A model generated the notes under the pieces. The model was given only the letters and a program-made list of their open reading frames with translations, made no database searches and was not told where the DNA came from. A stretch of 57,352 nt of DNA from contig JAJDBX010000010.1 of assembly GCA_029261135.1 (NCBI GenBank), forward strand, positions 1 to 57,352, in the 5' to 3' direction. Below are positions 1,899-17,353 of the stretch, in pieces. How positions within the stretch are numbered: position 1 is the first letter of the stretch; each line of letters begins with the position of its first letter. The DNA comes from Nitrospirota bacterium (lineage in GTDB: Bacteria; Nitrospirota; Nitrospiria; SBBL01; JAADHI01). The translations under genes were made by a program, and so were the position numbers.

Positions 1899-1903
1899 AT
1901 TTT
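1899..1903. repeat. Target-site duplication, methylase side (ATTTT)
   Basis: ATTTT directly precedes the TG terminus and is matched by ATTTT directly after the CA terminus at 17354-17358. The match stops at exactly 5 bp: the sixth base differs. It is A/T-rich and so weak alone, but it falls precisely where the inverted ends predict it. Confidence 0.7.
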
Positions 1904-1910
1904 TGTAACC

Positions 1911-1952
1911 GGACATCAGGCGTGAGCGGTTGGGACATTAAGCGTGAGCGAT
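1911..1952 (+). repeat. Two tandem transposase-type end sites (methylase end)
   Basis: GGACATCAGGCGTGAGCGGT (1911-1930) and GGACATTAAGCGTGAGCGAT (1933-1952) lie in the same orientation with a 22-bp period. Both point inward from the TG terminus. The outer copy is identical over 23 bp, inverted, to the outermost copy at the other end. Adjacent sites with a 22-bp period are how Mu arranges R1 and R2. Inferred role: MuA-like transposase binding. Confidence 0.75.
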
Positions 1953-1984
1953 AACTTTGAACTTAATCGGCTGGATCGGGTCAC

Positions 1985-2776
1985 TTATCCACAGTTAAAG
2001 ATGTTTGCGGGGGTGTAGTTCATTACAAGAAGTTCTCCAACGTTTTTGGTCTCTATTTTTCCTATACTATAGGTTGTCTTGACCTCCTCAATTTGAAAGT
2101 CTTTGAAGATCTCCCGAATCTCCGGCACATCATTTATCGACAACATAAAACGACCTTTAATCGCCTTTAAAATGGTCTTTAAATTATCAAAATCCGATGA
2201 CCTAAACACATTTTTGCCGTAGTCATCCTCACAGCCCCAATACGGGGGATCAATATAGAAAAAAGTTTCAGGCCGATCATAATTAGAGATCAGTTTTTCA
2301 TAACTGAGGTTTTCGATATAAGCCCGCGCCAGCCTCAAATGTACAGCCGAGAGGTCTTCCTCGATTCTTAAAATATTAATTCGAGGAGGTGCAGTGGGCG
2401 CATATCCGAAAGACTGATTTTTTACACGTGCACCATAGCTACTCTTTAATAGATAATAAAATCTGGCCGCCCTTTGAATATCAGTTAAAGTTGTCGGATT
2501 CTCCTCTAAAAGTCGATTAAATTCATCCCTTGCCGCCAGAGTCCATCGAAAGTACCTCACAAACTCGTCGAGGTGATTCTGGATCACCCGGTACAAGGTG
2601 ACGAGATCGGAATTGATATCGTTTATCACTTCAACTTTTGAGGGCGACTTTTTAAAAAATATCCATGCTGCTCCGGCGAAGACTTCGCAATAACATGTGT
2701 GAGGTGGAAATTTCGGGATAATCGTATCTGCAAGCCCTGATTTACCCCCGAGATACGCCAAAAAACTATTCATCAC
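1985..2776 (-). CDS. D12-class DNA adenine N6-methyltransferase
   Basis: 263 residues from a GTG at 2776, or 262 from the ATG at 2773. It has the SAM-binding FxGG-like N-terminus (LAYLGGKSGL, CEVFAGAAWIFF) and the catalytic DPPYWG motif (about residue 176), the layout of Dam/D12 class enzymes that methylate adenine at the exocyclic amine. It is the last gene of the prophage, between the tail operon and the end sites. That is where Mu has its modification gene mom, so protection of phage DNA from host restriction is the likely role. An AGGA lies 7-10 bases upstream. Its start overlaps the stop of a 29-codon ORF, suggesting translational coupling. The target sequence cannot be read from the protein. 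Confidence 0.9.
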   Translation of the reverse strand: MMNSFLAYLGGKSGLADTIIPKFPPHTCYCEVFAGAAWIFFKKSPSKVEVINDINSDLVTLYRVIQNHLDEFVRYFRWTLAARDEFNRLLEENPTTLTDIQRAARFYYLLKSSYGARVKNQSFGYAPTAPPRINILRIEEDLSAVHLRLARAYIENLSYEKLISNYDRPETFFYIDPPYWGCEDDYGKNVFRSSDFDNLKTILKAIKGRFMLSINDVPEIREIFKDFQIEEVKTTYSIGKIETKNVGELLVMNYTPANIFNCG

Positions 2777-2862
2777 ACAGGTTCCTTTTCATTGATTTTT
2801 TGGAATCGCCCTGCTATCTTTCTCTCCGCCCTTCGTAGGGTGTGCGGAGGGTAGCGGGTCAT
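2773..2862 (-). CDS. Possible 29-residue leader ORF coupled to the methylase
   Basis: ATG at 2862 with AGGAC a few bases upstream; the stop TGA (2775-2773) overlaps the GTG start of the methylase by four bases. The peptide is basic (MTRYPPHTLRRAERKIAG...). The frame stays open somewhat further upstream. Mu places the small regulator com in the same spot with an overlapping start, but no zinc-finger cysteines are present here, so no homology is claimed. It could equally be a non-coding repeat sequence. Confidence 0.3.
   Translation of the reverse strand: MTRYPPHTLRRAERKIAGRFQKINEKEPV
2828..2852. repeat. GC-rich hairpin between tail operon and methylase
   Basis: CTCCGC and GCGGAG pair around a short loop, with CCC/GGG pairing inside. 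It has no T-tract on either side, so it is not a normal intrinsic terminator. It lies inside the 29-codon ORF and could affect translation of the methylase. Confidence 0.35.
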
Positions 2863-2934
2863 CCCGTCCTGTGCTTCTTTCACGGGGTTGAGGGAGCGAC
2901 AACTCCCAAGACTACTCTTCGCCTCTTTATTTCA

Positions 2935-4431
2935 TCATCCCATCACCTCTTTAAAATTGAACTGAAGATCCGGCAGCAGCGTGTTGTAAAACTCTCCCGA
3001 TTCTTTGCTGTCGTCGATCATGAGCATCGGGCTTTGGCCTGCCTCCCATTGCACGGCGAAGGGGTGCTTTTCTTCGTCTCGATGATGCGGGAGCCAGTCA
3101 TTTTGGTAGCGCAGTAGTTCCGCGTCTGATAGCGCTTCGAACATTCCTCGTCGGACGCGCTGCTTAAAATGGCGAATCGCATGCTCTACCCCCGATCGCG
3201 CCTGAAAGACAGTCTCTTTATATTTTATTTGATTGGGCTTAAATGGCAATATCGGGTCGAAAGGCATCGACCATTTCTCACATAACAGAATTTCTGAGGC
3301 TTCCTGGAATGTTGACGATACAATGGAATAAATCGGGAAGATTGCGGGTGTAAAGTCAGTCAGAGAGACTGCGGCATCGGGCAGGTTTGTTGATGGCATA
3401 AGCTCTTGATCCTCGACTGCCACAGTATATCCCGTCCTGTCGCTGGCAGTCCTCCTGCCCATTAAGGACGTTATCCTTATCAATAGACCTGGATCAAATA
3501 TGACCAACGATGACACATTCACTTGCTCAAAAAGATAAATTTCGTCAACCCAGGCATCAAGCGCACTGAAGGTTTCCAGCCTAAGTTTTGATCCGGTTAA
3601 AATGTCATGATCGGTCGGCGTGAGGTCAACGGAATGCCAACCCTCCGCGACGGTAAATCCTGGGGACCATTCTGTAGTGGAAACAGTGCCGGAAGAAGGA
3701 TTGCTGAACGTAACATTCAAAGGCAAAAATGCCGCTCTATTTTCCACCGTTATCTTGATATCACCCACAGGCCAAGTTCCACTCGTACGGCACTTTACAA
3801 TCAACCTATATGCCCGCCCTTTGATCAAAGGATATTTTATCCCCTGCTCCACATAGAGGCTCGATCTATCACCAAGGTCGATCATTAAATCTGCGGAGCC
3901 TAAAATCGGGGTTGTTAAATTTACACCGGTGGTATCAGCAGTCCCGCCAACACTTGCTTTTAACCAAGGGGCCATAAACCCACTTTCAAACCCTCCATTG
4001 TCGATGAAATTGGGAAGATGAATATCAATGGTTGCATTATATGCGGACTTCCACACGGCATATTTTTGCCCGTCGGCGAGATGTTTTACAGGATTTCCGG
4101 CGAGGGCTTTAACATCAACCAACGCCCTTCTTATCTCACATGCTCCGGTGTCGGTAGTTGCTGGTGTCTCCCAAACTGTTGCAGTGTCTGTTGATGCAAC
4201 CCAATCCACGATGTGGTATTTGTTACCTGACGCAGGGAAATAGAGGATATAGGAGTTAAACTTGTCATCAGAGTCAGCCCCATTATCTGTGATCAAGGTG
4301 AACGTGGAAAGCGCAAAAGTCCTTTGGGCTTGATTGGGCGTTGCTCCCGTGGCCGAGGCATAAACCGTGCCATCGCCCAGACCATTTTCAGCGAGACGTA
4401 GGGTGTTTTTTATATAGAGAATTGGCGGCAT
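2935..4431 (-). CDS. Phage tail fibre/receptor-binding-like protein
   Basis: 498 residues, no signal peptide. Residues about 140-310 contain a beta-rich segment (FIDNGGFESGFMAPWLKAS ... VDEIYLFEQV) with the pattern of carbohydrate-binding modules, which start NGGFESG. The C-terminal 130 residues (IRHFKQRVRRGMFEALSDAE...) end in FNFKEVMG and look like a baseplate-attachment region. It is the distal gene of the tail operon, starting at the base next to the preceding stop. A role at the tail tip in host recognition is inferred from position and the sugar-binding-like domain. Confidence 0.6.
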   Translation of the reverse strand: MPPILYIKNTLRLAENGLGDGTVYASATGATPNQAQRTFALSTFTLITDNGADSDDKFNSYILYFPASGNKYHIVDWVASTDTATVWETPATTDTGACEIRRALVDVKALAGNPVKHLADGQKYAVWKSAYNATIDIHLPNFIDNGGFESGFMAPWLKASVGGTADTTGVNLTTPILGSADLMIDLGDRSSLYVEQGIKYPLIKGRAYRLIVKCRTSGTWPVGDIKITVENRAAFLPLNVTFSNPSSGTVSTTEWSPGFTVAEGWHSVDLTPTDHDILTGSKLRLETFSALDAWVDEIYLFEQVNVSSLVIFDPGLLIRITSLMGRRTASDRTGYTVAVEDQELMPSTNLPDAAVSLTDFTPAIFPIYSIVSSTFQEASEILLCEKWSMPFDPILPFKPNQIKYKETVFQARSGVEHAIRHFKQRVRRGMFEALSDAELLRYQNDWLPHHRDEEKHPFAVQWEAGQSPMLMIDDSKESGEFYNTLLPDLQFNFKEVMG

Positions 4432-4815
4432 TTATTTCCCAAATTTCCATGTTTTTCTATCGAATTTAGAATAATTGATGGTCTTCTTCCCATCCGTTGT
4501 CACAGTTTCATAATCCGCCGGAAATTTGTACGCCTCAACATGTACATAATGCTTTCCTGCTTCGTGATGTGTCGGAGTTCCTAAGATCTCATGGTCTAAT
4601 ACAAATCCCCTTTGCCTTTGCAGGATATTACCCGCGTCGTCAACGGTAAGGAGAATTTTAGGCTGTATAATAGTATCTACCTCTACACCGCCGATCAATT
4701 CTGTTTTAAGAACCTTACCATTTACTTGGGAAACTTGAACATCGTGTCGCTTAAAAGTTCCAGTTTCGTCATCAACCTCTAAATATCCGTTTCCATCTTT
4801 TATTAATCGCCCCAT
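4432..4815 (-). CDS. Small phage tail-operon protein, unknown
   Basis: 127 residues, polar, no membrane segment. It begins MGRLIKDGNGYLEVDDETG and ends GKKTINYSKFDRKTWKFGK. I do not recognise the family. It is packed between two tail-fibre-like genes, 9 bp after the upstream stop and directly abutting the downstream start, so it is almost certainly translated as part of the tail module. A fibre chaperone or small baseplate part is possible but not shown. Confidence 0.6.
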   Translation of the reverse strand: MGRLIKDGNGYLEVDDETGTFKRHDVQVSQVNGKVLKTELIGGVEVDTIIQPKILLTVDDAGNILQRQRGFVLDHEILGTPTHHEAGKHYVHVEAYKFPADYETVTTDGKKTINYSKFDRKTWKFGK

Positions 4816-4824
4816 TTTTGCTCC

Positions 4825-5907
4825 TTACCCATCATTTAAAACAAGTGCAGACATCCCACATAGACCGCTCAATACTGACATTGTTCCACTGCCGCATCGT
4901 CCGGTCACTTTAAGTTTTAATGTTCCTGCCGTGGTGATGTGAAAAATCCCTGACATACTAAAACTGTTCTGAACAGCTCTCATGTATGGCTGAGAAGTCA
5001 GTGATATAAATTGATTGGAGAACAGCCCAACGCCTGTGCCTGAATCTTTAATAGCAGAAATCTCAACAAAGTCATCGGTTGTAACTTTATCAACACCATT
5101 AAGAAGTACATTAACAAGCACTCTATCCCCGACATTAACCGTGCCTAAGTCAAGACCTGTCAATATATCTGTGACTGTCGTTGTGACTGTCGCGTTAGCA
5201 ACATTGTTTGCATCCACCTCAGTACGTCTAATTCTACTGACAGAGACGATGCCCGCCGTAACTTCTCCGGTACTGTCAATTGAGAACACACCGACCCTTG
5301 TTCCAGCTGCTGGCTTGTATGCTAAGTCCACCGTGCTGTTGAGCACGTTAAACACCAAATCCCATGAGTTGAGGGCCGCATTCTCTTGGGTTAAGTCGTC
5401 GTTGAGATTAGTTGATATCCCGTAAGTTTCTGCCGCCCGCTTAAATAATTGAAACCCAAATCTATCAGCCACATCCTTTCTTTTTAACCCATTAGCGGCG
5501 GATATCACATTAGCCCGATCTTCGTGCATCACAGTCGCGGGGTTCAGCAAAATGTAATGGTCGTTTTGAGTCACGTATATGAGGTCGGCTTGAATATTTA
5601 AGACTAAATCACCAGGCCCGATATTGACATAACCTGTGCCATGCTGCTTTGCGACATTTTTTGCCACGAAAACATCAACAGTTAGGCTTGTGGTGGAAGT
5701 ATTCGTAACAATAGGCTTATAACTGATTCTTAAGCCATTTGTTAAGGAGGCAAAAGCAGTTGTTGTCGTGACCGTTTGGGCATTAGCTGTGCCACCACCG
5801 ACCCCGACAATTGCACTACCATCGCGGAGTGCGAGCAAGCCATCTGCTGTTTTAGTGGCAATTGCTACATCTACCTGATCTGTCAATTTGGGTGTGTCAA
5901 AAGCCAT
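4825..5907 (-). CDS. Phage tail fibre-like structural protein
   Basis: 360 residues rich in Thr, Val, Asn and Ala. It has beta-strand-like repeats (TVTTTTAFASLTNGLRISY, SIDSTGEVTAGIVSVSRIRR) and a glycine/cysteine-rich C-terminal tip (RCGSGTMSVLSGLCGMSAL). This composition is typical of trimeric tail-fibre shafts. The ATG abuts the stop of the 1274-residue hub gene. The exact family is not recognised. Confidence 0.6.
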   Translation of the reverse strand: MAFDTPKLTDQVDVAIATKTADGLLALRDGSAIVGVGGGTANAQTVTTTTAFASLTNGLRISYKPIVTNTSTTSLTVDVFVAKNVAKQHGTGYVNIGPGDLVLNIQADLIYVTQNDHYILLNPATVMHEDRANVISAANGLKRKDVADRFGFQLFKRAAETYGISTNLNDDLTQENAALNSWDLVFNVLNSTVDLAYKPAAGTRVGVFSIDSTGEVTAGIVSVSRIRRTEVDANNVANATVTTTVTDILTGLDLGTVNVGDRVLVNVLLNGVDKVTTDDFVEISAIKDSGTGVGLFSNQFISLTSQPYMRAVQNSFSMSGIFHITTAGTLKLKVTGRCGSGTMSVLSGLCGMSALVLNDG

Positions 5908-8900
5908 TTAATACCCCTTTACGCCCCAATCGATCGTCGCCCCGACATCAACATTGTCCGAGGCGCGAAAGATTTGCATCGTGCATCCTGTTTTTGTTTT
6001 GGATGTCAGTTTTAAATATAAGGCCACGGTCATATTTTGAATCGCAATGGAGGTGACCCCTGGAATGTTGTTGAATACACGGTTATATGACACAACCTTT
6101 CCCCCCACTGGAATAATCTCGTCCTCTCGTGAATCTATTATGTCTGGTACATCTGAAATTGTTGCCAAGGCCGATATACCGATATTTGATGCACCATCAT
6201 CATTTGTTAATGTTATTTTAGGTTTCGTGAATCTGTAATCCTTGTCTGATTGAGACACTTGAGAAAAAGGAGTGTAAACTACCCCATCATCTGATTCTGA
6301 ATACTCTGTCAAAAAACTTGTCCCGATGGGGTCAGGGATGATGACACTGCCTGTTTCAATCGAAAGCCGGATACCTGAAATAATTGCTCCTAAATCAATC
6401 GGGTCACCTTCAAAAGTGCCACTTACCCGTGTGCCACGAAGGCCAAGCACCCCAGTGGCTGCACTGACAAGTTCCGTTGCACCTGAAACCAAATCATCAG
6501 TTGAACCGATCCATAAGTTATTTGTTGCCGCTTCCCTGATTAATCCAATAATTGTTCCTGGCCAGCCATCACTCTGATAATCTTTTGTTACGATGACATT
6601 ACGATTTTTTAAATCGAAAATTGTTATCGTTATTGCTGTGGCGACGAACGAATATCTCCCCGAAGTGTTTATTGCTGATATTAAATAAGTCTTGCTACCT
6701 GGCACGGTCGGGGCAACGGTTGTAAAGCTGTTTGTCTGGATTTCTGAGCCAATCTCAACAGAGGATGTCCATGAACTCCCCCACCTGATTTCATAGCCCT
6801 TGATGTCCTTGTCAGTGTTATTATCCCAATGGAACACGAGCTTATCGCCTACTTGATCAACAAAAAAGCCTGTCACATTGGCGGGGGGAAAAGCTTTCCC
6901 TGAAAATATCCTTGTCCCAATGGCCGTCTGGCCATCCTCATCGGTCACGCGGATGGCAACGGTGATACTTTGATAAGGCAGATTGAGCGTGGTTGAATTT
7001 CCAACAACCTCTGCATTGAAACCCTCCCCCGCCACATAGGATAGATCCCATTCGACAAGAGAAATTCCCCCTGTCACACCATAAGACCCAGAGGAGAGTA
7101 CAACGGATAGGGGTTGATCCGGTGCAGAAATAGAATAATTGATCACCGGTACCGGAGCAGAAACCACCCGAATAATCTTGGTTGCAATATGTTGTCCACC
7201 CAAAGCACTTGTCACCCTTAGGGCTATTATTTTGAAACCCGTTGCCGTTGAATCATAAGGAAAAGCCGCCGGAGTCACACCAGTAGCATCTACTGTGAAA
7301 TTGGCTCCGTCATAATCTTTATCCCATTCCCAAGTTACAATTGACCCACCAGAATTATTGTCATGCGATGCTGAACCATTCACCGTCACATTTAAAGTCG
7401 GTGAACCCGATATAGGACTTGCAGTAAAAGCGGCAGTCGGTAACTTATCTATGGCGACCGCTTCGATCAATGCCCACGAAATAAATCCCCCTTTAACGTG
7501 AATCTGTTTTTTAATCGCCATGAATTGGGTGCCCACTGCACCCAATTCACCTTTTTTGATATAGACGGGCGTGGTGACATCAACGTACTCCCCGACCTGC
7601 ACCCCGATTTCATTCAATGCCGTTTTGCAACCATAAGGGATAATGCCATTCTTTTTGTGCTTTACCTCGCGTTTTGCCACTCGAAGTGCAATGGTTTCAC
7701 CATGATACGTTTCTTCATTTCCGAGATATTTGGTTTTGATAACGCGATCCGCGACATGGGATTCTGCCCCAGGTGCCCAATCATCCTGAGCGTCAATATC
7801 GATGTCACCACCTGTGCCGGAAAACTTCCCGTCCATATGAAGATCATACTTAACGAAACATTGATTGATGATACTTTTAGGCAAACCGGACTTCTGGACA
7901 TCTCCAAGTGCAAGCACATCCTCATCCCATGTCGCAACAGAGGTGTCCAATCGTGGGAATTGTACAATTTCTAAAATACCATCCTCTTGAGCTAGCAAAT
8001 ACGCACCGACCAAATCCAGAATGTCTTTGACTTCCGATGCGGCCTCCACTTCTTCTTTTAGCTCTCGATGAGTGATCCATAATGTTGTTGTGTCACTTGC
8101 CTTGATATTTGTCTCAAGACTATCAAAGGTTGACGTCCTGATATACCTGGGCAAAATTCCAACCTCCGAGCGAATGATCTTTTTCATCGCGTTGATAAGA
8201 GTATCGCCCTTAAACGTGCGCCGGATTTTAGAGGTATCAATCTTTATTTTATTTGTTTTCGGGATTTTTTGGTTCAAATTTGTTGTGTAGTCCTCTGCCG
8301 CCAAGGTAATTAATCCATGCGTAAATTGAAAATCAGTCACCTTGCCGGAAAACAAAAGTAGCAAGTCGTTTTCCGATGAAGCATCCGGGCGATGTCCTAA
8401 TCGGTATTCAATAGGCAAATTCAGAAGATTTGATTGGATCAAATACCGATTAATTAAACCTCCTAAATCAATAATCTCAAATGAGTAGGTACCCCGCTTG
8501 GTGATCCTGCCCCTGACATCCAATTCGGTTGAAATTGAGGACACATTGTGTAGTGCAGAGACATCCGCAAAGGGAATTTTGCCACTTGATACAACGATCT
8601 GCTCTTTGGGAAATATTGGATTTGCGCCATTAAATTGATGGGTTCGGAGGCCATTGGTGGTTGATGTAAATGTAACCTCTAAAATATAATATCGTTTTAA
8701 GGTTGATATCGTGATACTCGAAATGCTTGATGGATCAATCACCCCCAAATCAAGGGTTTTGGCTCCCAGTGAATCACCAGCCCAAGCATGATATGAAACA
8801 CTGGTTTCCTGCCTCAGCCCGGTGATGGCATCGATCATCGCCGCAGGGGTGTCCTGAATAGACCAGGCCCCATTTGCTGTCGGGACTTCACCTAAGTCAA

Positions 8901-9732
8901 ATTGAACTTGCAGGAGTGGAACAGGGGATGAGTCATATTGGTAAAAGTTTGCCTTTAAATACAATTCAATATTAAGATCCCCTGGCCCCGACCTTTCTGA
9001 ATGATTAATCCGTTTGTTTTGTCCCGACCACTTAATACTGAATTGTGGGATATCATCCCCGATAGCCTGGTACACGAGAACAAATGCGTATTGAGCACCT
9101 GCCTCCAGAATAAAATCAAAAATAAATTCGTGATCTGTAGGGGATGCCGGGGCCAAAGGAATCGTGTGTATATCAAATGTAGTGGAACTTTCCACTCCTC
9201 CACCAAATGCTTGATTAACAAATTCCGGGACATTGAAATCAATTAAATCCCCATCCTTTACTTTATAAAGTCGCCCCTTTAAAACGACTTGACCTGCCTG
9301 ACTTCCTATCCTGGATTCTGCTCTAAGTTTTATTGTGATCGATTTTAATTTAGATGCAAATTGAATGTCTTCATCTATCGAAAATGTCTGTAATACGTAT
9401 GGAATCACAGGATCATGTCCCCCCTGCGCCTCACTAAGTCTTACCAAGATGCCAGTGTGTGAAATATATCCACCTGGATCAAAAATCATTCTCCCGCCAG
9501 GGAAATCAGTGCCCTGTCCCAATGCATTAAGTGGGGACGCTAAAGAGGGATCTGGATAAACCTGTTCAATGTCCCGCTTTGTCGCAATATTGGCGAGATT
9601 GCTGTTTACGTCCACATAGGTTTGTGTTGACCGAGGTGCGTCGAGAACGGACGTGGTGACCTTGACCATTTCAACAGGTTCAAAGGTTCCGGCATCCAAC
9701 GCGGCCTTCATTTTTGGTGGTATTGCTAACAT
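5908..9732 (-). CDS. Tail hub/tip protein with PKD and FN3-like domains
   Basis: 1274 residues, the largest gene of the prophage. The N-terminal third is beta-rich. The middle (about 380-720) contains SISTELDVRGRITKRGTYSF and FSGKVTDFQFTHGLITLAAEDY, a pattern of tail hub proteins of Mu-like siphophages. About residues 760-850 form a PKD domain (AAFTASPISGSPTLNVTVNG ... SIVTWEWDKDYDG), followed by a second PKD-like segment and an FN3-like module (KLVFHWDNNTDKDIKGYEIRW). It follows tape measure, the normal place for distal tail/hub proteins. PKD and FN3 modules usually mediate surface or polysaccharide contacts. Confidence 0.75.
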   Translation of the reverse strand: MLAIPPKMKAALDAGTFEPVEMVKVTTSVLDAPRSTQTYVDVNSNLANIATKRDIEQVYPDPSLASPLNALGQGTDFPGGRMIFDPGGYISHTGILVRLSEAQGGHDPVIPYVLQTFSIDEDIQFASKLKSITIKLRAESRIGSQAGQVVLKGRLYKVKDGDLIDFNVPEFVNQAFGGGVESSTTFDIHTIPLAPASPTDHEFIFDFILEAGAQYAFVLVYQAIGDDIPQFSIKWSGQNKRINHSERSGPGDLNIELYLKANFYQYDSSPVPLLQVQFDLGEVPTANGAWSIQDTPAAMIDAITGLRQETSVSYHAWAGDSLGAKTLDLGVIDPSSISSITISTLKRYYILEVTFTSTTNGLRTHQFNGANPIFPKEQIVVSSGKIPFADVSALHNVSSISTELDVRGRITKRGTYSFEIIDLGGLINRYLIQSNLLNLPIEYRLGHRPDASSENDLLLLFSGKVTDFQFTHGLITLAAEDYTTNLNQKIPKTNKIKIDTSKIRRTFKGDTLINAMKKIIRSEVGILPRYIRTSTFDSLETNIKASDTTTLWITHRELKEEVEAASEVKDILDLVGAYLLAQEDGILEIVQFPRLDTSVATWDEDVLALGDVQKSGLPKSIINQCFVKYDLHMDGKFSGTGGDIDIDAQDDWAPGAESHVADRVIKTKYLGNEETYHGETIALRVAKREVKHKKNGIIPYGCKTALNEIGVQVGEYVDVTTPVYIKKGELGAVGTQFMAIKKQIHVKGGFISWALIEAVAIDKLPTAAFTASPISGSPTLNVTVNGSASHDNNSGGSIVTWEWDKDYDGANFTVDATGVTPAAFPYDSTATGFKIIALRVTSALGGQHIATKIIRVVSAPVPVINYSISAPDQPLSVVLSSGSYGVTGGISLVEWDLSYVAGEGFNAEVVGNSTTLNLPYQSITVAIRVTDEDGQTAIGTRIFSGKAFPPANVTGFFVDQVGDKLVFHWDNNTDKDIKGYEIRWGSSWTSSVEIGSEIQTNSFTTVAPTVPGSKTYLISAINTSGRYSFVATAITITIFDLKNRNVIVTKDYQSDGWPGTIIGLIREAATNNLWIGSTDDLVSGATELVSAATGVLGLRGTRVSGTFEGDPIDLGAIISGIRLSIETGSVIIPDPIGTSFLTEYSESDDGVVYTPFSQVSQSDKDYRFTKPKITLTNDDGASNIGISALATISDVPDIIDSREDEIIPVGGKVVSYNRVFNNIPGVTSIAIQNMTVALYLKLTSKTKTGCTMQIFRASDNVDVGATIDWGVKGY

Positions 9733-11709
9733 CTATGTTCTCTCAAAGGCGATTTGCACATCGCCGAAATTGCCATTGGATCGTTTCAGTTCATCCCCCA
9801 AAGCCGCAGAGGCGTTTGCCCAGACCTCATGCCAATCAACGGACGCTGGATCAAGGGCATGCACGTTTAAAGTCACTTGCGGTGCGGGTTGTTGGTTTTG
9901 ATTTCCATTAAAATCTGTTCTCGGCCCTGTCCGATCCGCGCCGATCAACGGGGTTCCGCCACCGCCACCGCCACCGGTTGACCCAAAACTTGTGGCCGAA
10001 ATCCGCGCAACATTAGCAAGGCCCAAGCCCACAACCGAAGCCGCTGCCGCTATATTGTAGGGATATGGGACACTGGCAAGAGCTTTGTTTGCTCCGGCGT
10101 AGGTATCAGTAATTGCCTGTGCAATATTAAAAACCTTCACGGCATTAAATAGAGCTTTGTTCTTCTGCCCGGTAAAAATAAAGAGCGCATTTGCAAAATT
10201 GGCAGCCGCGCTGAAGCTATCAGATCTTGCCTGTGTTTTCAGATTTTCGATCCTTTGAATTTCAGCTAATTCATTTTCAGCAACACTGATACGAAGTTGT
10301 GCCGCATCAAGAAACATCTGCCCCAAACGCTCTTGATGGCTGGCTTCCGCCGCCTCAATGTTCTGCTGATCTAATGCTCTGATTAAAAACGCTTCTCCCA
10401 TCGCTTCTTGTTGTCTTGCTAACTTATCGGCCAAAAATTGCTTTTGGGCTTCTGCTGCAATGCCAAATCCGGCATCTTCTTGCAGAAGACTCGCATCAGA
10501 AAGGGGAAGTTGTGCGGGTATCCCAGATTGTAGTGAGGCCGCAAGCGCATTCTTTCCCGCTGTTTTGGCTCTAAATTCCTCGAGTCTATTTTCCAGTTTG
10601 TCAAAGAATTTTCCAACATCTTCCAAAGCACTTGATCTTTCCCTCGCACTCAAGAAAAATTTTCCAGCCTCTGATTCCAGTCGATTTATTTCATCGGCGA
10701 ATTTAGCGGCTTGACCCGTAGTTGTCCCGAGTGTATCTGATATTCTAGCTAGAAAAAGATTGAATTGGAGCATATTTGCAGATGCTAATTTTACGCTTCC
10801 CTGTAGTTCATCCAACCAATTCAAAAATTCAATGACAGCCTCGATCCCAGACCTCAACCCACTGATAATGTTTCTGCCGAGGTCAGTACCCAAATTCTTC
10901 AATCCACCCGTGTCACGCAACTTTTCGATCTCTTCGGTCACAAGCGACAACCCGGCTTTTGCAAAATCTACAAGGCCACCCTTCGCACTCGCAAATTCAT
11001 CTTTTGCCTGACTGATTTGGTCGCCGAAATTTGACATGATTCCGGTTAGGGTTTCCATATTTTTTTTAGCGGCCCCTACTGCAGATGCTCCCATCGCCTT
11101 GATCAATTTACTTATGGCATCTCGGCCCAATTTCCCCTTTACTGCCAATGCATCAAGCTCTTTTTTACTTTTGTCCATTGCCTTTGAAAGCAGCTCCCAA
11201 ACAGGAACACCCCGCTCAATCAACTGGTTTGCCTCTTCAGCCTGGAATTTTTGTTTTGTCCATGCCTGTCCGACGGCAAGCACAACTCCCATCAATCGAT
11301 CTTGACCACCGCCAAGTTTTGATGAGATGTCAACGAGAGATTGCATAGTGCCATTCATTACATCAAGACCTAAAGCTTTGGCCCGAACAAATGCTTGCGT
11401 TACCCCTTCGAGCGATAATGGCGTTGTTTTGGCAAAATCTTTGACCCAGGCTAAGGCTTGCTGTCCTGCTAATGCTGACCCCTGCAACGCTTCAAGCTGG
11501 ATTCCTAAATTTTCGAAGGATGAAGCAGTAGATAAAAGTGATTTTATAACCAAACCCAGCCCCGCCGCCCCCGCTAATGCGACAAAGGCGGTTCTCAAAT
11601 TAAACACCATCGAGCGCAGTCGGTTTCCCACGCCGAGAATGCGACTCACGGTCTTAGAGGCAAAATCCTTGGCGCGGATGACGATTTTAGTTTCGAGATC
11701 GTTTCCCAT
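9733..11709 (-). CDS. Phage tail tape measure protein
   Basis: 658 residues, mainly helical. The N-terminus has a hydrophobic stretch (AFVALAGAAGLGLVIKSLL) followed by the conserved tape-measure block FENLGIQLEALQGSALAGQQ ... FAKTTPLSLEGVTQAF ... GVVLAVGQAWTKQKFQAEEA. Coiled-coil sections fill the centre, and another hydrophobic stretch lies near residues 545-580. A glycine-rich linker precedes the C-terminus. The gene follows the two chaperone frames, as in most long-tailed phages. Its length sets tail length; by the usual rule of about 0.15 nm per residue this would be a tail near 100 nm. Confidence 0.9.
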   Translation of the reverse strand: MGNDLETKIVIRAKDFASKTVSRILGVGNRLRSMVFNLRTAFVALAGAAGLGLVIKSLLSTASSFENLGIQLEALQGSALAGQQALAWVKDFAKTTPLSLEGVTQAFVRAKALGLDVMNGTMQSLVDISSKLGGGQDRLMGVVLAVGQAWTKQKFQAEEANQLIERGVPVWELLSKAMDKSKKELDALAVKGKLGRDAISKLIKAMGASAVGAAKKNMETLTGIMSNFGDQISQAKDEFASAKGGLVDFAKAGLSLVTEEIEKLRDTGGLKNLGTDLGRNIISGLRSGIEAVIEFLNWLDELQGSVKLASANMLQFNLFLARISDTLGTTTGQAAKFADEINRLESEAGKFFLSARERSSALEDVGKFFDKLENRLEEFRAKTAGKNALAASLQSGIPAQLPLSDASLLQEDAGFGIAAEAQKQFLADKLARQQEAMGEAFLIRALDQQNIEAAEASHQERLGQMFLDAAQLRISVAENELAEIQRIENLKTQARSDSFSAAANFANALFIFTGQKNKALFNAVKVFNIAQAITDTYAGANKALASVPYPYNIAAAASVVGLGLANVARISATSFGSTGGGGGGGTPLIGADRTGPRTDFNGNQNQQPAPQVTLNVHALDPASVDWHEVWANASAALGDELKRSNGNFGDVQIAFERT

Positions 11710-11712
11710 AGC

Positions 11713-11810
11713 TAAATCCCCCTTTGTTAAAGTGGGAAGATAAAAGGAGTTCCTTTTTATTTCACAAAAGCCCTTACCCCACTTAGAAAAAGGGGGGCAA
11801 GGGGGGATTT
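11713..11810. repeat. Palindromic repeat between chaperone and tape-measure genes
   Basis: AAATCCCCCTTTGTTAAAG at 11713 is answered by inverted sequence at 11777-11810 (CCCACTT ... AGGGGG ... GGGGGGATTT). The two arms can pair over most of their length with an interior loop that carries the tape-measure ribosome-binding site (AAGGAG near 11743, other strand orientation considered). It resembles dispersed REP-like elements and may attenuate transcription into tape measure. Confidence 0.45.
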
Positions 11811-12557
11811 ATTTCTTTGGTTTCTCTTTTGGTTTCTCTTTTGGTTTTTCATTCAATCCATCCAATGCTTCGGCCTCAATCACTTTAAAGGCGTCCATCG
11901 TGAGATTGTCCTGATCTTCCAGGCCTCCGGCGCGTGGGAGGGAATGCCGTAAAATCCCGCAGCCGAAACCGGTAGGAAGCTGGCTATGGCAATCCCAAAA
12001 TAGAGCGACCAAAGCATCCGATTCCGGCGTGATATAGGTCGCCGGGCATTCATGCAGAATAATCCCGGCGGCCAAAGAGAAAACCGCCTTGGGGTTTCCC
12101 TCGCCGTAACAGTTCCGCTTGTGCGTGAGACCCTTCTCTTCGCAGTCGTCTTGCGTCCATCTCTTTTTTGCCGCCTTTAGTCCCCAGCGGACGGCGGCCC
12201 GGAGTTTTTTATTTCGTCCGGCCCCAGGGTAGATGCATCTTCCATCGCATCGATAATCTCAGTAATCAGCACCGTCATACCGGGCGCGTCATAGAGTTGC
12301 TCTGCCGTCGTGATCGCCTGATGTGTTAGGAAATTCGTCAAATTTTCGATCTTGCCCACATTGTCGAAAAACTGCCGCTCCTGAATTTCTGCCGCATTAT
12401 CTGTGAAATCATCGCGGAAACCTTTTCTCAGCTTCCGTTTGATCTGCTTCGCGTAGGCTTGAATATCCCGACGCGTCAGCGGTTTAATTTCAACCGTGAT
12501 CGGATAGTCTTTTTCCCTGTTGCCGTTCCAAGCCGGGATATATTTAAGGTATTCCAT
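11809..12557 (-). CDS. Tail assembly chaperone GT, made by -1 frameshift
   Basis: About 249 residues if ribosomes slip once at the heptamer A AAA AAC (12210-12204). The second frame has no convincing start of its own; the first start-like codon is a TTG at 12075. It is open all the way back to the slip site, reading LRAAVRWGLKAAKKRW, then QDDCEEKGLTHKRNCYGEG and a Lys/Pro-rich end. The frame after slipping matches a -1 shift exactly. This reproduces the G/GT chaperone pair of lambda- and Mu-like tails, where a few percent of product is extended and recruits tape measure for tube polymerisation. Confidence 0.75.
12177..12557 (-). CDS. Tail assembly chaperone G (zero-frame product)
   Basis: 126 residues from the ATG at 12557 (MEYLKYIPAWNG), preceded by GAGGGAC; the longer frame to 12635 has no better start and overlaps the tube gene. 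The body is helical and charged (VEIKPLTRRDIQAYAKQIKR), as in tail chaperones. It lies between tail tube and tape measure, the conserved place for this gene. Near its 3' end the slippery heptamer allows continuation into the -1 frame. It stops at TAA 12179-12177 without slipping. Confidence 0.8.
   Translation of the reverse strand: MEYLKYIPAWNGNREKDYPITVEIKPLTRRDIQAYAKQIKRKLRKGFRDDFTDNAAEIQERQFFDNVGKIENLTNFLTHQAITTAEQLYDAPGMTVLITEIIDAMEDASTLGPDEIKNSGPPSAGD
12204..12210 (-). promoter_or_regulatory. Programmed -1 ribosomal frameshift site, A AAA AAC
   Basis: Read on the minus strand in the chaperone frame the codons are ATA AAA AAC, giving the canonical X XXY YYZ heptamer. A GC-rich stretch follows (CCGGGCCGCCGTCCGCTGGGG), which could form the stimulatory structure. 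The -1 frame is open for about 130 further codons. Confidence 0.8.
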
Positions 12558-12603
12558 GTTTTTGTCCCTCTCTTTTGTTGGTTGTTGTTTCAAAAAGCCC
12601 CCG

Positions 12604-13635
12604 TTAATCATAGGTCTGCGTTGCCTCATCCTCACCCGTCGTCGGCAGGGCGGATCCGCTCAAGGTGACCATTGCCTCATCGTCGTCATTGGTTTCGATG
12701 GCCGGAATCTCCAACTCCACCTTGTTCATGTCGAATTTCACGCGATTCGCGGCGGTGTCACCCGCGATCAATTGCAGATCGTACTGAATCAACTTTTGCG
12801 CGCCGGTTAAATATTTAAAGTTCGGCCTTGAGAGGTAAATTTCACTCTCGAAGCTGACTTCCCGTTTTTGCGCGCTGTAAAAACCATCCGGTGTGGCTGA
12901 TCCGTAGGTTTTATTCCGAATACTTCGATTGGCTTTGACCGTAATGGTGTGCGACACCGATTTCACCTCGACGGCATCAAGCTGAAACGATCCGGCGATG
13001 CCGGAAATCACCACGCCCGACGTTGTCCCCGTGAGTATGTTGGGCGTCACGACAGCCCCGATCGATTGTGCACCCACGATAATCGGGCTGACCTGAACCA
13101 CGTCGCCGATCGGCTCTGCTGACACCGTGTGGCCCGTTGATGATCCGACGTCAATTTTCGAGCCGGTGGAGAAATTGACCGCATCACCAGGCTGAACCGT
13201 GATCGAAGCCTCCCCGCCAATTAAGGCGGCGGCAAGCGTGGAATATCCCGTTTGAATGATTTCTGCTGCTTGGCCCGTGATTTCCACGGTGGCTTCATCA
13301 TCTCCAGGCAAGCTGTAGACAATCTGATCCGGCACAAAGCCTTTGATATGCCATGCCGCGAAATCGGCGACAAAATGGACACTCAAGCCAAAAAGTGTGT
13401 CTTCCGGATGTTTAGAGAAAGAATTCACCACGCTGACACCACCACTGACCGCCTGTGCGCCATACAAGTGCTTTTCAAACAATGCCAAATCCGAGGCAAC
13501 CCCCAATGAACCTGATGCGATGAGATTCGCCTTGATCGTCAATTCTCCGGACTTTTTTGATATCTTGCCTTCATGAATTTCTGGGCCGTGGGTCTCTCCC
13601 TTTTGAGCGCTGTTATCGTTGCCGGAATCAGCCAT
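12604..13635 (-). CDS. Phage tail tube protein, probably N-terminally truncated
   Basis: 343 residues from the ATG at 13635. The start MADSGNDNSAQKGETHGPEI runs straight into the segment KSGELTIKANLIASGSLGVA ... LFEKHLYGAQAVSGG, which in tail tubes of Mu-like siphophages lies well inside the protein. The usual N-terminal portion is therefore absent. The frame is open further upstream to 14145, but that stretch is the antisense of a clear plus-strand gene and does not read like tail tube. The C-terminal half (IAGSFQLDAVEV ... SFESEIYLSRPNFKYLTGAQ) is intact. The tail encoded here may not assemble. Confidence 0.7.
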   Translation of the reverse strand: MADSGNDNSAQKGETHGPEIHEGKISKKSGELTIKANLIASGSLGVASDLALFEKHLYGAQAVSGGVSVVNSFSKHPEDTLFGLSVHFVADFAAWHIKGFVPDQIVYSLPGDDEATVEITGQAAEIIQTGYSTLAAALIGGEASITVQPGDAVNFSTGSKIDVGSSTGHTVSAEPIGDVVQVSPIIVGAQSIGAVVTPNILTGTTSGVVISGIAGSFQLDAVEVKSVSHTITVKANRSIRNKTYGSATPDGFYSAQKREVSFESEIYLSRPNFKYLTGAQKLIQYDLQLIAGDTAANRVKFDMNKVELEIPAIETNDDDEAMVTLSGSALPTTGEDEATQTYD

Positions 13636-14136
13636 GTCCTGAGCCGCTACTATCTGCTGGCGGTCGAACGTGAAAAATACCGGCAGACCCTCTTTAGTGA
13701 AAAGCTGAAAGCGTATCGGGAAATATCGGAAGCGATCCATAAATTCAATGTCGCTCTCGCCAGGCTGCTTCCTGAGTTGCTGCGTTTTATCGTATCGCCG
13801 AAGAAGCGCCCTGAAGGCATCGAAGCTGCATTCGATCTCGCCGCTAATATCTACAATGTTCTTGATCGCCATATCTTCCTCATTCCAAATAAGACTGTTG
13901 ATCGGGTGCCCTTTGGATCCCAATGTGAAGAGCCAGATCCAGCGCTCAAAGACACGACGTCTATACTGAGAGAATTTGAAGTACTTCATGAGCGGGCTTT
14001 CGAGCTTCTCAACCTCCTGCGGGAGGATCTTGGCATTGAAGAGTTTTCCTATAAACTTGCAAAACGATCGCTCCTTTCTCTCGTAAAATCCTCCTTTATC
14101 GGGCTTTGCTTGAGGATTAAGAGCCTGTTTCGATAA
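13573..14136 (+). CDS. Phage-borne membrane protein of unknown function (moron)
   Basis: 187 residues. An N-terminal membrane helix (FWAVGLSLLSAVIVAGISHV) is followed by a charged helical region with REKYRQTLFSEKLKAYREI, a pattern common in small phage or superinfection-related membrane proteins. It runs opposite to the tail operon and overlaps the first 63 bp of the tail-tube gene head to head. No Shine-Dalgarno sequence precedes the ATG and a stop lies just upstream in frame. It occupies the place of the lost head and early genes, so it probably arrived with or after the deletion. It could act in exclusion of other phages, but that is speculation. Confidence 0.65.
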   Translation: MNFWAVGLSLLSAVIVAGISHVLSRYYLLAVEREKYRQTLFSEKLKAYREISEAIHKFNVALARLLPELLRFIVSPKKRPEGIEAAFDLAANIYNVLDRHIFLIPNKTVDRVPFGSQCEEPDPALKDTTSILREFEVLHERAFELLNLLREDLGIEEFSYKLAKRSLLSLVKSSFIGLCLRIKSLFR

Positions 14137-14141
14137 ACAGT

Positions 14142-14567
14142 TCATTTCCGCTTCTTCTCCAATTCTCTAATCTTATTTTGTAGTTTTTCCCGTTCGAGCC
14201 TGAGCCTTACAATTTCCAGGGCTTGGGTTTCAGTTGAATCTAAAAAGGTGCAGGCCATTGGTTCGGCAAATATTTTTAAGAGAGACAAAGAGCCGGTGAC
14301 TTTACAAAATGCCGGGATGATCTCGGCAGGCAAGCGATGCCCTTCTGCACTTTCCGAACAATATTTATCCAGCATTTCTTTTGTGAGATCACGATCCATG
14401 AGTTCTGAGATGCGCGCGGCGATTTGATATCGCGAGAGTGGGCAGTTTTTGATGGCTTTTACGAGAGCGGCCCGGACAAGATGAGGAATATCTGCAAAAT
14501 TTCCTTCCCTTATATCCAGAAGCAAAAGCTGCTCCGGCACTGTCCGGTTATTTTTAGAATTAGACAT
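14142..14567 (-). CDS. Mu-like early-region DNA-binding protein
   Basis: 141 residues. The central part, CPLSRYQIAARISELMDRDL, then EGHRLPAEIIPAFCKVTGSL, is a helix-turn-helix block that I associate with early regulatory proteins of Mu-like prophages. The C-terminus is a charged coiled coil (LEREKLQNKIRELEKKRK). In intact relatives such genes lie near the transposase genes; here none is left. The gene starts 66 bp from a divergent zinc-ribbon gene. Regulatory role is inferred. Confidence 0.6.
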   Translation of the reverse strand: MSNSKNNRTVPEQLLLLDIREGNFADIPHLVRAALVKAIKNCPLSRYQIAARISELMDRDLTKEMLDKYCSESAEGHRLPAEIIPAFCKVTGSLSLLKIFAEPMACTFLDSTETQALEIVRLRLEREKLQNKIRELEKKRK

Positions 14568-14633
14568 TGCGCCCGTTTTATCCTTTTGCTACTCTGAAGC
14601 CGTTCTCAGGGGCGAAAAAGTTTGGAGATATCC

Positions 14634-14978
14634 ATGCAATCTAATTACGTAATCTGTGAAAATCCATCGTGTTCTTTTAGTGGGCGTGGATGGAAAGGGA
14701 GTATTAAGTTTTGTCCTGAATGTGGAGAGAAAGTGCTTTATGAGTGCCCTCATTGTGATAACCTCCACATCCGATCCACGGAGTTCACAAGTAAAGGGCA
14801 GATGTTTTGTAAACTGTGCGGAGAACGCATTAAACCGCCCCCGGAAAAAGAATCTCGCCCGAAAAATCCGAAACTTTCACTGGTTCCCAAGGAGAAGCCC
14901 CACAAAAAACGCAGCAAACAGAATCAAAATCAGGCGGATAATGGCGGGCTTCCCGGCAGGCCGGACAAACCAGCATAA
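14634..14978 (+). CDS. Small zinc-ribbon protein
   Basis: 114 residues from the ATG at 14634, which has GGAG six bases upstream; an in-frame ATG at 14622 is less well placed. Four Cys pairs are visible: CENPSC, CPECGEK, CPHC and CKLCGERIK, forming two zinc ribbons. The C-terminal third is Lys/Pro-rich and low in complexity. Its last 149 bp overlap the end of the convergent gene 14830-15174, which also encodes zinc-binding motifs. Function unknown; nucleic-acid binding is plausible. Confidence 0.6.
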   Translation: MQSNYVICENPSCSFSGRGWKGSIKFCPECGEKVLYECPHCDNLHIRSTEFTSKGQMFCKLCGERIKPPPEKESRPKNPKLSLVPKEKPHKKRSKQNQNQADNGGLPGRPDKPA

Positions 14979-15174
14979 GGGGGCGCAAATCTTCACGGCA
15001 TCGGCAAAAATTTTGATCGCTTTCAAACGGCGCGACGCACTTTGTGCAGAGACCGGAGCCATCTGAGATAAGGACTTCTTCGAGGTCGTCCAGGAATGCT
15101 TCAAAGCGTTGTGTAAAAAGCCGCTTGAGGTGGAAGAATTTTTGATAATCAGACTCGGTGACTATTCGCTTCAT
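14830..15174 (-). CDS. Small zinc-finger phage protein
   Basis: 114 residues with a GGAGG five bases before the ATG. The N-terminal half is a charged helix (YQKFFHLKRLFTQRFEAFLD). The C-terminal half has CTKC, FCRC, CPAC and CVFCG, enough for two zinc sites. It is the second gene leftward from the repressor/ner switch, 11 bp after the 77-residue HTH gene, so it belongs to the early lytic transcript. The 3' third overlaps the convergent zinc-ribbon gene. Specific function unknown. Confidence 0.6.
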   Translation of the reverse strand: MKRIVTESDYQKFFHLKRLFTQRFEAFLDDLEEVLISDGSGLCTKCVAPFESDQNFCRCREDLRPLMLVCPACREARHYPPDFDSVCCVFCGASPWEPVKVSDFSGEILFPGAV

Positions 15175-15185
15175 GATGCCTCCAT

Positions 15186-15419
15186 TTATGCCGCGTCCTC
15201 TATTGGGAAAATCTCCTCCAGGGGGACGTTTAAAAATTTGGCGATTTTTTTGCGGATGGGCCAGCAGATGCGGGTGCCATGTACAACATGGTGCACGATC
15301 CGGTAGTGCGCCCCTATTTTTTTTGCCATATAATTAATCTTGGTCTCACGATCCGGATCTAAGTAGAGGAGTAGTTCTTTTATTTTTTTTGTGTTTGGCT
15401 TGGTCAAAACTGAACTCAT
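15186..15419 (-). CDS. Cro/Ner-like small helix-turn-helix regulator
   Basis: 77 residues. It reads as one XRE-like HTH domain: INYMAKKIGAHYRIVHHVV for the first helices and PIRKKIAKFLNVPLEEIFP for the last. It is transcribed leftward and divergently from the S24 repressor with only 28 bp between the two start codons, the layout of cI/cro in lambda and c/ner in Mu. The expected role is to shut off repressor transcription and damp the early promoter. Confidence 0.7.
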   Translation of the reverse strand: MSSVLTKPNTKKIKELLLYLDPDRETKINYMAKKIGAHYRIVHHVVHGTRICWPIRKKIAKFLNVPLEEIFPIEDAA

Positions 15420-15429
15420 TTTTAAATAT

Positions 15430-15444
15430 TATTGAATATCAATA
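15430..15444. promoter_or_regulatory. Operator dyad between repressor and Ner-like gene
   Basis: TATTGAATATCAATA is a perfect dyad (six-base arms, three-base centre) in the 28-bp gap between the divergent starts. The ATTGAATAT half reappears in the intragenic dyad at 15631-15650. A repressor or Ner binding site is inferred. Confidence 0.6.
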
Positions 15445-15447
15445 TAT

Positions 15448-16167
15448 ATGTCAACATTAAAATCGAAAATCAATAAAGAAAATAATACAACAGGGGAAAG
15501 ATTGCGGTATATCAGGAAATTATCCGATATAAGCCAGGTTGAATTCGCAAATTCTGTTGGAATATCACAGGGACACCTATCGTCATTGGAATCCGATAAA
15601 GAGAAAGTGACGGAAACGATTGCGATTGCCATTGAATATAGATATTCAATAAGCGGGGACTGGCTGCTTACTGGGGAAGGCCTACAAGAAAAACAGGATC
15701 ACCACATAAGTGAGGCTGCCGGAATATATGCGGCTAAATCACCAGAAGAAGGTTTTACACTTGTTCCAAAGTATGACATCGAGGCCAGCGCCGGTGGCGG
15801 GCGAGTGATTCACAGTGAGCAGGTTGTAGACCATCTGACATTTAAAACCTCCTGGATTCGAGGTGTACTGGGTCTTGATCCGAAGAATTTGATTTTAATC
15901 TCGGCTGTCGGCGACTCAATGGAGCCGACAATAAGAGCGGGCGACCTTCTATTATTAGACAGAGCAGTTGAAAGTATCGTTGATGATGCACTTTATTCGA
16001 TTTTGATTAATGATGTTCTTTTGATTAAACGTATTCAGCGACTTTTTGATGCCTCTGTCTTGGTGAAGTCGGATAATCCGGCCTACCAAACACAAACACT
16101 AAGCAAGACACAGGCGGAGGATTTGCAGGTCATCGGTCGCTTGGTCTGGGTGGGGAGACGGGTTTAG
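15448..16167 (+). CDS. Prophage repressor, XRE-type HTH plus S24 LexA-like peptidase
   Basis: 239 residues. HTH at about 16-55 (GERLRYIRKLSDISQVEFAN, VGISQGHLSSLES). The C-terminal S24 domain has the Ala115-Gly116 cleavage site (ASAGGG), Ser157 (GDSMEPT) and Lys194 (LLIKRIQ), so RecA-dependent self-cleavage and SOS induction are expected. No Shine-Dalgarno lies before the ATG, which follows an operator dyad by three bases; leaderless translation, as in lambda cI, is possible. It diverges from the Ner-like gene. It appears intact, so it may still repress related phages. Confidence 0.88.
   Translation: MSTLKSKINKENNTTGERLRYIRKLSDISQVEFANSVGISQGHLSSLESDKEKVTETIAIAIEYRYSISGDWLLTGEGLQEKQDHHISEAAGIYAAKSPEEGFTLVPKYDIEASAGGGRVIHSEQVVDHLTFKTSWIRGVLGLDPKNLILISAVGDSMEPTIRAGDLLLLDRAVESIVDDALYSILINDVLLIKRIQRLFDASVLVKSDNPAYQTQTLSKTQAEDLQVIGRLVWVGRRV
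15631..15650. promoter_or_regulatory. Intragenic operator-like palindrome in the repressor gene
   Basis: ATTGAATATAGATATTCAAT has perfect 9-bp arms around AG and shares ATTGAATAT with the intergenic dyad about 200 bp away. It encodes IEYRYSI, so the symmetry is not explained by codon choice alone. It may be a second operator that allows looping or autorepression. Confidence 0.55.
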
Positions 16168-16197
16168 AAAACTTCTTTTTATATGAGGAGAAAATAA

Positions 16198-16851
16198 ATG
16201 AGAATACCAATTGTTTTTATCGTAGTTACTCCCTTCCTTTTTGGTTGCATGATGCCGCTCAATCTCCCAATGACTTCTACTTTAAATGATCTTGTTTCGA
16301 TGGGCACAAAAACAAACGGCAAAGAAAATATTTCTTTTGAATACAAATCCAATATTTTGGATGGCGTGATTAAACCGTTTGGAAAAGATCGATCTGAAGA
16401 ACAGGCAATGCACCCAGGGTTTGGACATTCTGAGTCGGTGACTCTTGGCAGAATGCTGAAAGAGTATATGCATAACAAATTCTCGAAAATTTCACAAGAC
16501 GGGGAAACCAAGATAACGATTTTATTAAAGGATTTTTGGATTGAGCAATATTCGACTGAGAGTAAGGACAAGCAATCGATGGTCGCATTATTTGGGGGCG
16601 AAATTAATATTATTTCTATAGCAAAAGTGAAGGTTCAGTTTACGATAAATAGGAGGGGAAAAGAGGAGATTAAGGTTGTTACAGCTACCACCGAAGACGT
16701 GTTTGTCTCAGGGATTGGGACAGGAACAACCACAAGCTTTGCCCATCGAGGTAACGATTCTATCGAATATGTTCATGCCCGGAACATCAATAAAGCGAAC
16801 AATAAAGTGATCATGATTTTCAATTCATACCTCGAAGAAAAGGGGCTGTAA
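16198..16851 (+). CDS. Prophage-carried lipoprotein, unknown
   Basis: 217 residues. A lipoprotein signal (IPIVFIVVTPFLFGC) puts the acylated Cys at residue 17. The mature part is mixed alpha/beta (VTLGRMLKEYMHNKFSKI, TKITILLKDFWIEQY), similar in style to outer-membrane lipoproteins of unknown function. GAGGAG precedes the ATG. It lies between the repressor and the prophage end on the strand expressed in lysogens, the typical place for a lysogenic-conversion gene that changes the host surface. Family not recognised. Confidence 0.65.
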   Translation: MRIPIVFIVVTPFLFGCMMPLNLPMTSTLNDLVSMGTKTNGKENISFEYKSNILDGVIKPFGKDRSEEQAMHPGFGHSESVTLGRMLKEYMHNKFSKISQDGETKITILLKDFWIEQYSTESKDKQSMVALFGGEINIISIAKVKVQFTINRRGKEEIKVVTATTEDVFVSGIGTGTTTSFAHRGNDSIEYVHARNINKANNKVIMIFNSYLEEKGL

Positions 16852-16913
16852 TGATTAATGTTATCAACAGATTTGTTTTTGAGTTACCCACAGGGAAAAC
16901 AGGGTTTTGAAAT

Positions 16914-17051
16914 GCGCCTTGGATTTTTCACTTAAAGGCAATCCTAGAGGCAAAGAGTGCTTATAAGTTATTGATTCTTAAAGGCTTGGACATTATGCGT
17001 GAGCGGTAAGTGCGTGCGCCTTGGATTGCGCCTTGGATTGCGCCTTGGATT
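16914..17051 (+). repeat. GCGCCTTGGATT repeats (1 + 3 tandem)
   Basis: Three perfect head-to-tail 12-mers occupy 17016-17051 and an isolated copy sits at 16914-16925. They lie inside the prophage end, close to the plus-oriented end site at 16988-17007. Function unknown; iteron-like protein binding is possible. Confidence 0.75.
16988..17007 (+). repeat. End-site copy in opposite orientation
   Basis: GGACATTATGCGTGAGCGGT differs from the outer site at three positions. Unlike the three outer copies of this end it points outward, 346 bp from the terminus. Confidence 0.65.
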
Positions 17052-17149
17052 GCATGATTTTATGCTGTTTAAGGAATAAATGGCGATGGGTGGATGTGCC
17101 GGAAAGCCTTATTTAAAGGGCTTTAAACGCTTTTTAAAATTTTTAAATA

Positions 17150-17220
17150 ACCGCTCACGCCAAATGGCCGAAGGCCAAAAAACGGGGTTATCCACAGGAT
17201 ACCGCTCACGCTTAATGTCC
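17150..17220 (-). repeat. Two internal transposase-type end sites (repressor end)
   Basis: Minus-strand copies at 17150-17169 (diverged) and 17201-17220 (GGACATTAAGCGTGAGCGGT). With the outermost copy at 17327 they give one site near the end and two set back by more than 100 bp, like L1, L2 and L3 of Mu. Confidence 0.65.
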
Positions 17221-17346: not shown

Positions 17347-17353
17347 ATTCACA

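What the first reader, a model, noticed from the sequence alone, without database searches (positions are those of the whole stretch)
1985..16851. Tail-only transposable element without a transposase
The element keeps repressor, early switch, tail operon, methylase, accessory genes and intact ends, but no transposase, head, terminase or lysis genes. It could be a deletion remnant, a satellite moved by a helper Mu-like phage, or an early stage of a flexible tail-like particle (F-pyocin style).
Basis: inference. Interest (0 to 1): 0.65.

Follow-up and report, generated by a model that had tools for sequence, protein, structure and literature searches.

The report
Deletion remnant of a Mu-like prophage
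A 15-kb stretch upstream of a bacterial lexA gene is what is left of a Mu-like virus that inserted there and then lost its transposase, head and lysis genes, while keeping its end sites, its repressor switch and its tail genes; a second, independently formed remnant with the same layout turned up in another member of the phylum.

Summary
The element is real and slightly larger than stated: 1904-17353 (15,450 bp). It has TGT...ACA ends, a perfect 5-bp target duplication (ATTTT) and 20-bp end repeats spaced like MuA sites. It carries a D3112/DMS3-type c repressor, a ner-like gene, an early regulator, a tail module and a terminal Dam methylase, but no recognisable transposase, head or lysis gene. 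It is single copy, and no MuA relative was found in the host assembly (phylum Nitrospirota). In 92 of 105 distinct loci with the same early regulator a MuA gene was detected near it, nearly all directly downstream; a Nitrospira prophage keeps the full order, the regulator overlapping the A start codon. A second tail-only element was found in another Nitrospirota genome (17,454 bp, TSD AAAGC, same end layout). There the transposase N-terminus is fused to the last 38 residues of the tail tube, and the tail module and end sites differ, so the two arose independently. Best reading: a defective deletion derivative of a transposable siphophage, not a shared satellite lineage and not a finished tailocin. 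The open question is why two unrelated elements share nearly the same deletion span.

The parts
1904..17353 (.). whole element, 15,450 bp, TGT...ACA ends
   Evidence: termini TGTAACCGGACATCAGG / TGTGAATGGACATCAGG (inverted), TSD ATTTT on both sides
1899..1903 (.). target-site duplication ATTTT, left copy (72 bp upstream of lexA, 1227-1832 -)
17354..17358 (.). target-site duplication ATTTT, right copy
1911..1952 (+). two end-binding sites 22 bp apart at the Dam end (Mu R1/R2 layout)
17150..17346 (-). three end-binding sites at the repressor end (17327, 17201, 17150; Mu L1-L3-like layout); a further inverted copy at 16988-17007 (+)
1985..2776 (-). Dam-type DNA adenine methylase, terminal position as in MuM16-1 (46% identical)
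   Evidence: Pfam D12 8e-31, phrog_56 2e-92
2935..4431 (-). tail-operon protein, 498 aa (positional match to MuM16-1 p48)
   Evidence: position only
4432..4815 (-). tail-operon protein, 127 aa
   Evidence: position only
4825..5907 (-). tail-operon protein, 360 aa
   Evidence: position only
5908..9732 (-). 1274-aa tail tip/fibre-like protein; residues 950-1274 match tail fibre proteins (24-25% identity)
9733..11709 (-). tape measure protein, 658 aa; N-terminal domain 46-48% identical to transposable and other siphophages
   Evidence: Pfam TMP_3 1.2e-32
11713..11812 (.). MITE-like inverted repeat AAATCCCCC...GGGGGGATTT inside the tail operon
   Evidence: sequence
12177..12635 (-). probable tail assembly chaperone, 152 aa
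   Evidence: position between tube and tape measure; inference
12604..13572 (-). putative tail tube protein (phrog_290, weak); 5' end unresolved
   Evidence: E 7e-6
13573..14136 (+). 187-aa ORF with N-terminal hydrophobic helix, lying where A, B, head and lysis genes are missing; an in-register antisense ORF joins the tube frame, coding strand undecided
14142..14567 (-). early regulator r (phrog_2345; JBD30/D3112 orf3 family); its stop overlaps an ATG as r overlaps A in the Nitrospira prophage
14830..15174 (-). small zinc-ribbon-like ORF of the early region (weak)
15186..15419 (-). ner/Cro-like HTH protein, 77 aa (weak)
   Evidence: phrog_769 E 0.016, position
15426..15454 (-). candidate early promoter TTGACA-17-TAATAT reading towards ner, r and the tail genes
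   Evidence: 10 of 12 consensus bases; consensus match only, no more sites than in shuffles
15448..16167 (+). c repressor, HTH + S24 peptidase
   Evidence: best of 50,697 phage records are DMS3/D3112-like c repressors, 34% over 99%
16198..16851 (+). lipoprotein-like accessory gene, 217 aa, between c and the end
   Evidence: sequence; an analogous small lipoprotein follows c in G217:C139

Best explanation
It is a defective deletion derivative of a D3112/MuM16-1-like transposable siphophage. A phage transposed into the site upstream of lexA, giving TG...CA ends and the ATTTT duplication (shown by sequence; that it was full-length at insertion is inferred). One or more deletions then removed everything from the start of A through B, later regulators, lysis and head genes to the 5' part of the tail tube region (inferred from gene order in relatives). 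What remains is the repressor switch, a candidate early promoter now reading towards the tail genes, the tail module and Dam. The repressor is of the S24 (LexA-like, self-cleaving) type, so DNA damage could derepress the leftover genes, but without transposase, head and lysis genes the element can neither replicate nor be released by itself (inferred).
For: Intact ends, TSD and Mu-spaced sites; c of the DMS3/D3112 family; r is orf3 of JBD30/D3112, upstream of A there; in Nitrospira G059 the r homologue (46%) overlaps the A start, and B, terL and a tape measure gene follow; of 105 distinct r loci 92 have an A match near r, and several of the rest have a divergent A; no MuA relative in the host assembly; right-end gene order and Dam as in MuM16-1; single copy; a second, independently formed element with the same kind of deletion.
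Against: No parental phage with the same end sites was found, so the deletion is not demonstrated against an ancestor. The remaining tail ORFs are open, showing no general decay. Two unrelated elements share nearly the same deletion span, which chance alone makes somewhat unlikely. The assembly is about 95% complete.
Confidence: 0.8

Rival explanations
1. Non-autonomous (satellite-like) element: intact ends let a related phage's MuA move it in trans when both are in one cell.
For: Ends, end-site layout and TSD look fully intact; Mu-type transposases act in trans on paired ends (general knowledge of mini-Mu).
Against: Single copy; no MuA relative and no second set of end sites in the assembly; no clustered end sites in 395 sampled phylum genomes; G217 has different end sites and a different tail module, so there is no shared lineage.
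Confidence: 0.1
2. Early-stage flexible tail-like particle (F-pyocin style): the deletion put the tail operon under the damage-inducible early promoter.
For: Tail ORFs open; r and tail genes co-directional in both elements; S24-type repressor in both.
Against: No lysis genes recognised; in G217 the tube is cut to its last 38 residues; in the window the tube 5' end is unclear and a MITE-like repeat lies just upstream of the tape measure gene; no match in the same genus.
Confidence: 0.07
3. Assembly chimera joining a phage end to unrelated tail genes.
For: Genomes in this set include MAGs; no read data were available here.
Against: Both ends match each other and are flanked by one TSD in the window; a second element in another genome shows the same layout with its own TSD.
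Confidence: 0.03

Closest known systems
Casadabanvirus D3112/DMS3/JBD30 (transposable siphophages of Pseudomonas)
   Same: c repressor family and position, ner and orf3-type regulator order
   Different: those phages carry A, B, lysis and head genes and are about 37 kb; the tail module here differs
Shewanella phage vB_SspS_MuM16-1
   Same: tape measure N-terminal domain, order of tail genes, Dam methylase at the right end, c repressor (33%)
   Different: complete 37.9-kb phage; tube followed directly by a 1308-aa tape measure protein
Nitrospira prophage in G059:C12
   Same: r homologue (46%) with the same overlap to the following gene; host in the same class
   Different: retains A, B, terL and head-region genes
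G217:C139 element (Nitrospirota, other family)
   Same: TSD, Mu-type ends, c, r, transposase truncated, tail module, terminal Dam; no head genes found
   Different: different end-site sequence and lambda-like tail module; A'-tube fusion, so an independent deletion
Mini-Mu and defective Mu-like prophages
   Same: internal deletion with both ends kept
   Different: mini-Mu constructs are engineered; comparison from general knowledge

Membership tests
Mu-like transposable phage | TG...CA ends with 5-bp target duplication | tested here: met
   ATTTT/ATTTT
Mu-like transposable phage | multiple transposase sites arranged as in Mu | tested here: met
   8/30 and 8/134/185 against Mu 6/28 and 6/151
Mu-like transposable phage | c, ner, early regulator order | tested here: met
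   ner assignment weak
Mu-like transposable phage | MuA transposase and MuB | tested here: not met
   no such ORF in the element; no MuA relative in the assembly; MuB not searched genome-wide
Mu-like transposable phage | head, terminase and lysis genes | tested here: not met
   none among scanned ORFs of the element
F-type tailocin | complete non-contractile tail gene set with intact tube | tested here: inconclusive
   tube 5' end unresolved; lost in the G217 parallel
F-type tailocin | lysis cassette | tested here: not met
F-type tailocin | conserved locus across related strains | tested here: not met
   no tape measure match in the four same-genus genomes; strains of the same species not available
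Phage satellite | conserved gene set at several sites or in several genomes | tested here: not met
   no close relative of the tape measure, tube or 1274-aa proteins found
Phage satellite | mobilisation by a helper | not testable with these tools
   needs a cognate MuA or helper and an assay

The most novel reading that the evidence does not exclude
Nitrospirota carry a recurring kind of element in which deletion from transposase to tail tube leaves a repressor-controlled tail operon between intact transposition ends, maintained because the inducible tail gene products or the Dam methylase benefit the host, and movable in trans.
Probability: 0.08. Interest if true: 0.65.

Novelty: new member of a known kind. 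Interest (0 to 1): 0.3.

Why it matters
It shows transposable siphophages of the D3112 regulatory lineage in Nitrospirota and how they end up as grounded remnants. The parallel element makes a testable case of whether deletions that keep repressor, tail and ends are favoured, which bears on how tail-like particles start.

Tried and rejected
End-repeat hits in viral contigs L018/L019 lie inside coding sequence of an unrelated phage. Single-mismatch end-site hits in other phylum genomes are lone sites. The tape measure scan of genome contigs and the 1274-aa scan of viral contigs found nothing. AlphaFold without an alignment gave unusable models for the tube (pLDDT 31) and a weak all-helical one for the 187-aa ORF (pLDDT 50). 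Codon bias, composition and strand log-odds do not decide which strand codes at 13573-14136. PF02914 rang in no control genome, so that negative is uninformative. L113 (truncated A followed by inverted head genes) was set aside as a rearranged or misassembled phage. Loci L130 and L176 have a 723-aa ORF in the A position that was not identified.

Full report
Observation. Its tips are TGTAACCGGACATCAGGCGTGAGCGGTTGG and, from the other side, TGTGAATGGACATCAGGCGTGAGCGGTTGG; the five bases outside are ATTTT on both sides. So the element is 1904-17353, 15,450 bp, inserted 72 bp upstream of the lexA start codon. The end repeat occurs six times in the window (0.03 expected) and nowhere else in the assembly.

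End architecture. Measured from each tip, sites lie at 8 and 30 at the Dam end and at 8, 134 and 185 at the repressor end. The same script found Mu's own sites at 6 and 28 (right end) and 6 and 151 (left end). This is the layout of a Mu-type transpososome end pair, with a different binding sequence.

Genes. From the repressor end inward: a lipoprotein-like gene, a c repressor with S24 peptidase domain whose best matches among 50,697 phage records are DMS3/D3112-like c repressors, a weak ner-like HTH gene, a small zinc-ribbon-like ORF, and the regulator r (phrog_2345, orf3 of JBD30 and D3112). Then the tail module: putative tube (phrog_290, weak), probable chaperone, tape measure protein (TMP_3), a 1274-aa tip/fibre-like protein and three further proteins placed by position, then a D12 Dam methylase 46% identical to that at the end of MuM16-1. 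No transposase, head, terminase or lysis family was found.

What is missing, and from where. In the Nitrospira prophage G059:C12 the r homologue overlaps the start codon of a 652-aa MuA (phrog_310, 1e-95), followed by MuB, terL and a tape measure gene. I collected r-bearing loci from the phylum, IMG/VR and GTDB contigs. Of 105 distinct loci, 92 have an A match in the fetched stretch, nearly all directly downstream of r, and five more end too early to tell. Of the eight others, L126, L129 and L131 have a divergent A, L130 and L176 have an unidentified 723-aa ORF in that place, L072 is not Mu-like, L113 is rearranged, and L070 is described next. In the window r is followed instead by 570 bp of unresolved sequence and then the tail genes; its stop overlaps an ATG just as r overlaps A in G059. 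The gap therefore begins at the A start and ends in the tube region.

A second element. L070/L074 (G217:C139, same phylum, other family) carries lipoprotein, c (37% to ours), r, a transposase N-terminus, chaperone, tape measure, lambda-like tail tip, fibre and Dam, with no head gene recognised among the scanned ORFs. Its tips are TGTGATGAGACACATG and TGTAACGCGGCACATG, TSD AAAGC, length 17,454 bp, sites at 9/158 and 9/30. The transposase frame runs into the last 38 residues of a tail tube (match to the full 313-aa tube of L203, a Phage_tube_2 member). End sites and tail module differ from the window's, so this is an independent event.

Interpretation. The simplest account is that complete transposable phages inserted and then lost the A-to-tube segment. 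No MuA relative was detected in the host genome (PF09299, and a two-sequence A profile that did find relatives in other genomes of the class), the element is single copy, and the four same-genus genomes searched lack it. A satellite lineage would need a shared gene set, which was not found. A tailocin would need a tube and lysis genes; the first is lost in G217 and uncertain here, the second is absent as far as family searches reach.

Uncertainties. At 13573-14136 two in-register ORFs oppose each other: a plus-strand 187-aa protein with an N-terminal hydrophobic helix, and a minus-strand extension of the tube frame. Codon scores, composition and a strand log-odds test do not separate them, and neither has a relative in the databases searched. 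So it is open whether the tube here is truncated, replaced at its N-terminus or intact. No parent phage with the same ends was found. Head genes were not searched for in the rest of the host genome.

Literature. The 5-bp duplication and conserved 36-39 kb length of transposable phages are described in PMC8705779, and the Pseudomonas Mu-like group in PMC4378225; the searches made here found no report of tail-only derivatives with intact ends, but the library is partial.

Verdict. An ordinary kind of object, a defective Mu-like prophage, in a little-studied phylum; of modest added interest because a second independent case shares nearly the same deletion span.

Noticed in passing
G217:C139 (L070/L074), 3745-21198: Second tail-only Mu-type element with its own ends and TSD (AAAGC), next to a tRNA-Ser gene; transposase N-terminus fused to the tail tube C-terminus.
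   Followed up: yes
L113 (IMGVR_UViG_3300045950_000183), 3212-13259: r followed by a truncated transposase and then an inverted terminase, portal and minor head block; rearranged phage or misassembly.
   Followed up: partly
window 11713-11812: MITE-like inverted repeat AAATCCCCC...GGGGGGATTT directly upstream of the tape measure gene; its 22-bp core also occurs in L100.
   Followed up: partly
window 14622-15174: Two overlapping opposite ORFs, both with CxxC zinc-ribbon-like motifs; which is a gene is unclear.
   Followed up: no
window 1227-1832 and 1904: The element sits 72 bp upstream of lexA and may separate lexA from part of its promoter region.
   Followed up: no
G059:C12 (L040/L041): Mu-like prophage in a Nitrospira-class genome with A, B and terL, its tail end cut by the contig end; candidate left-end sites ATTCTCAAACTACTTGGAGGTT at L041 15660, 15703 and 15793.
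   Followed up: partly
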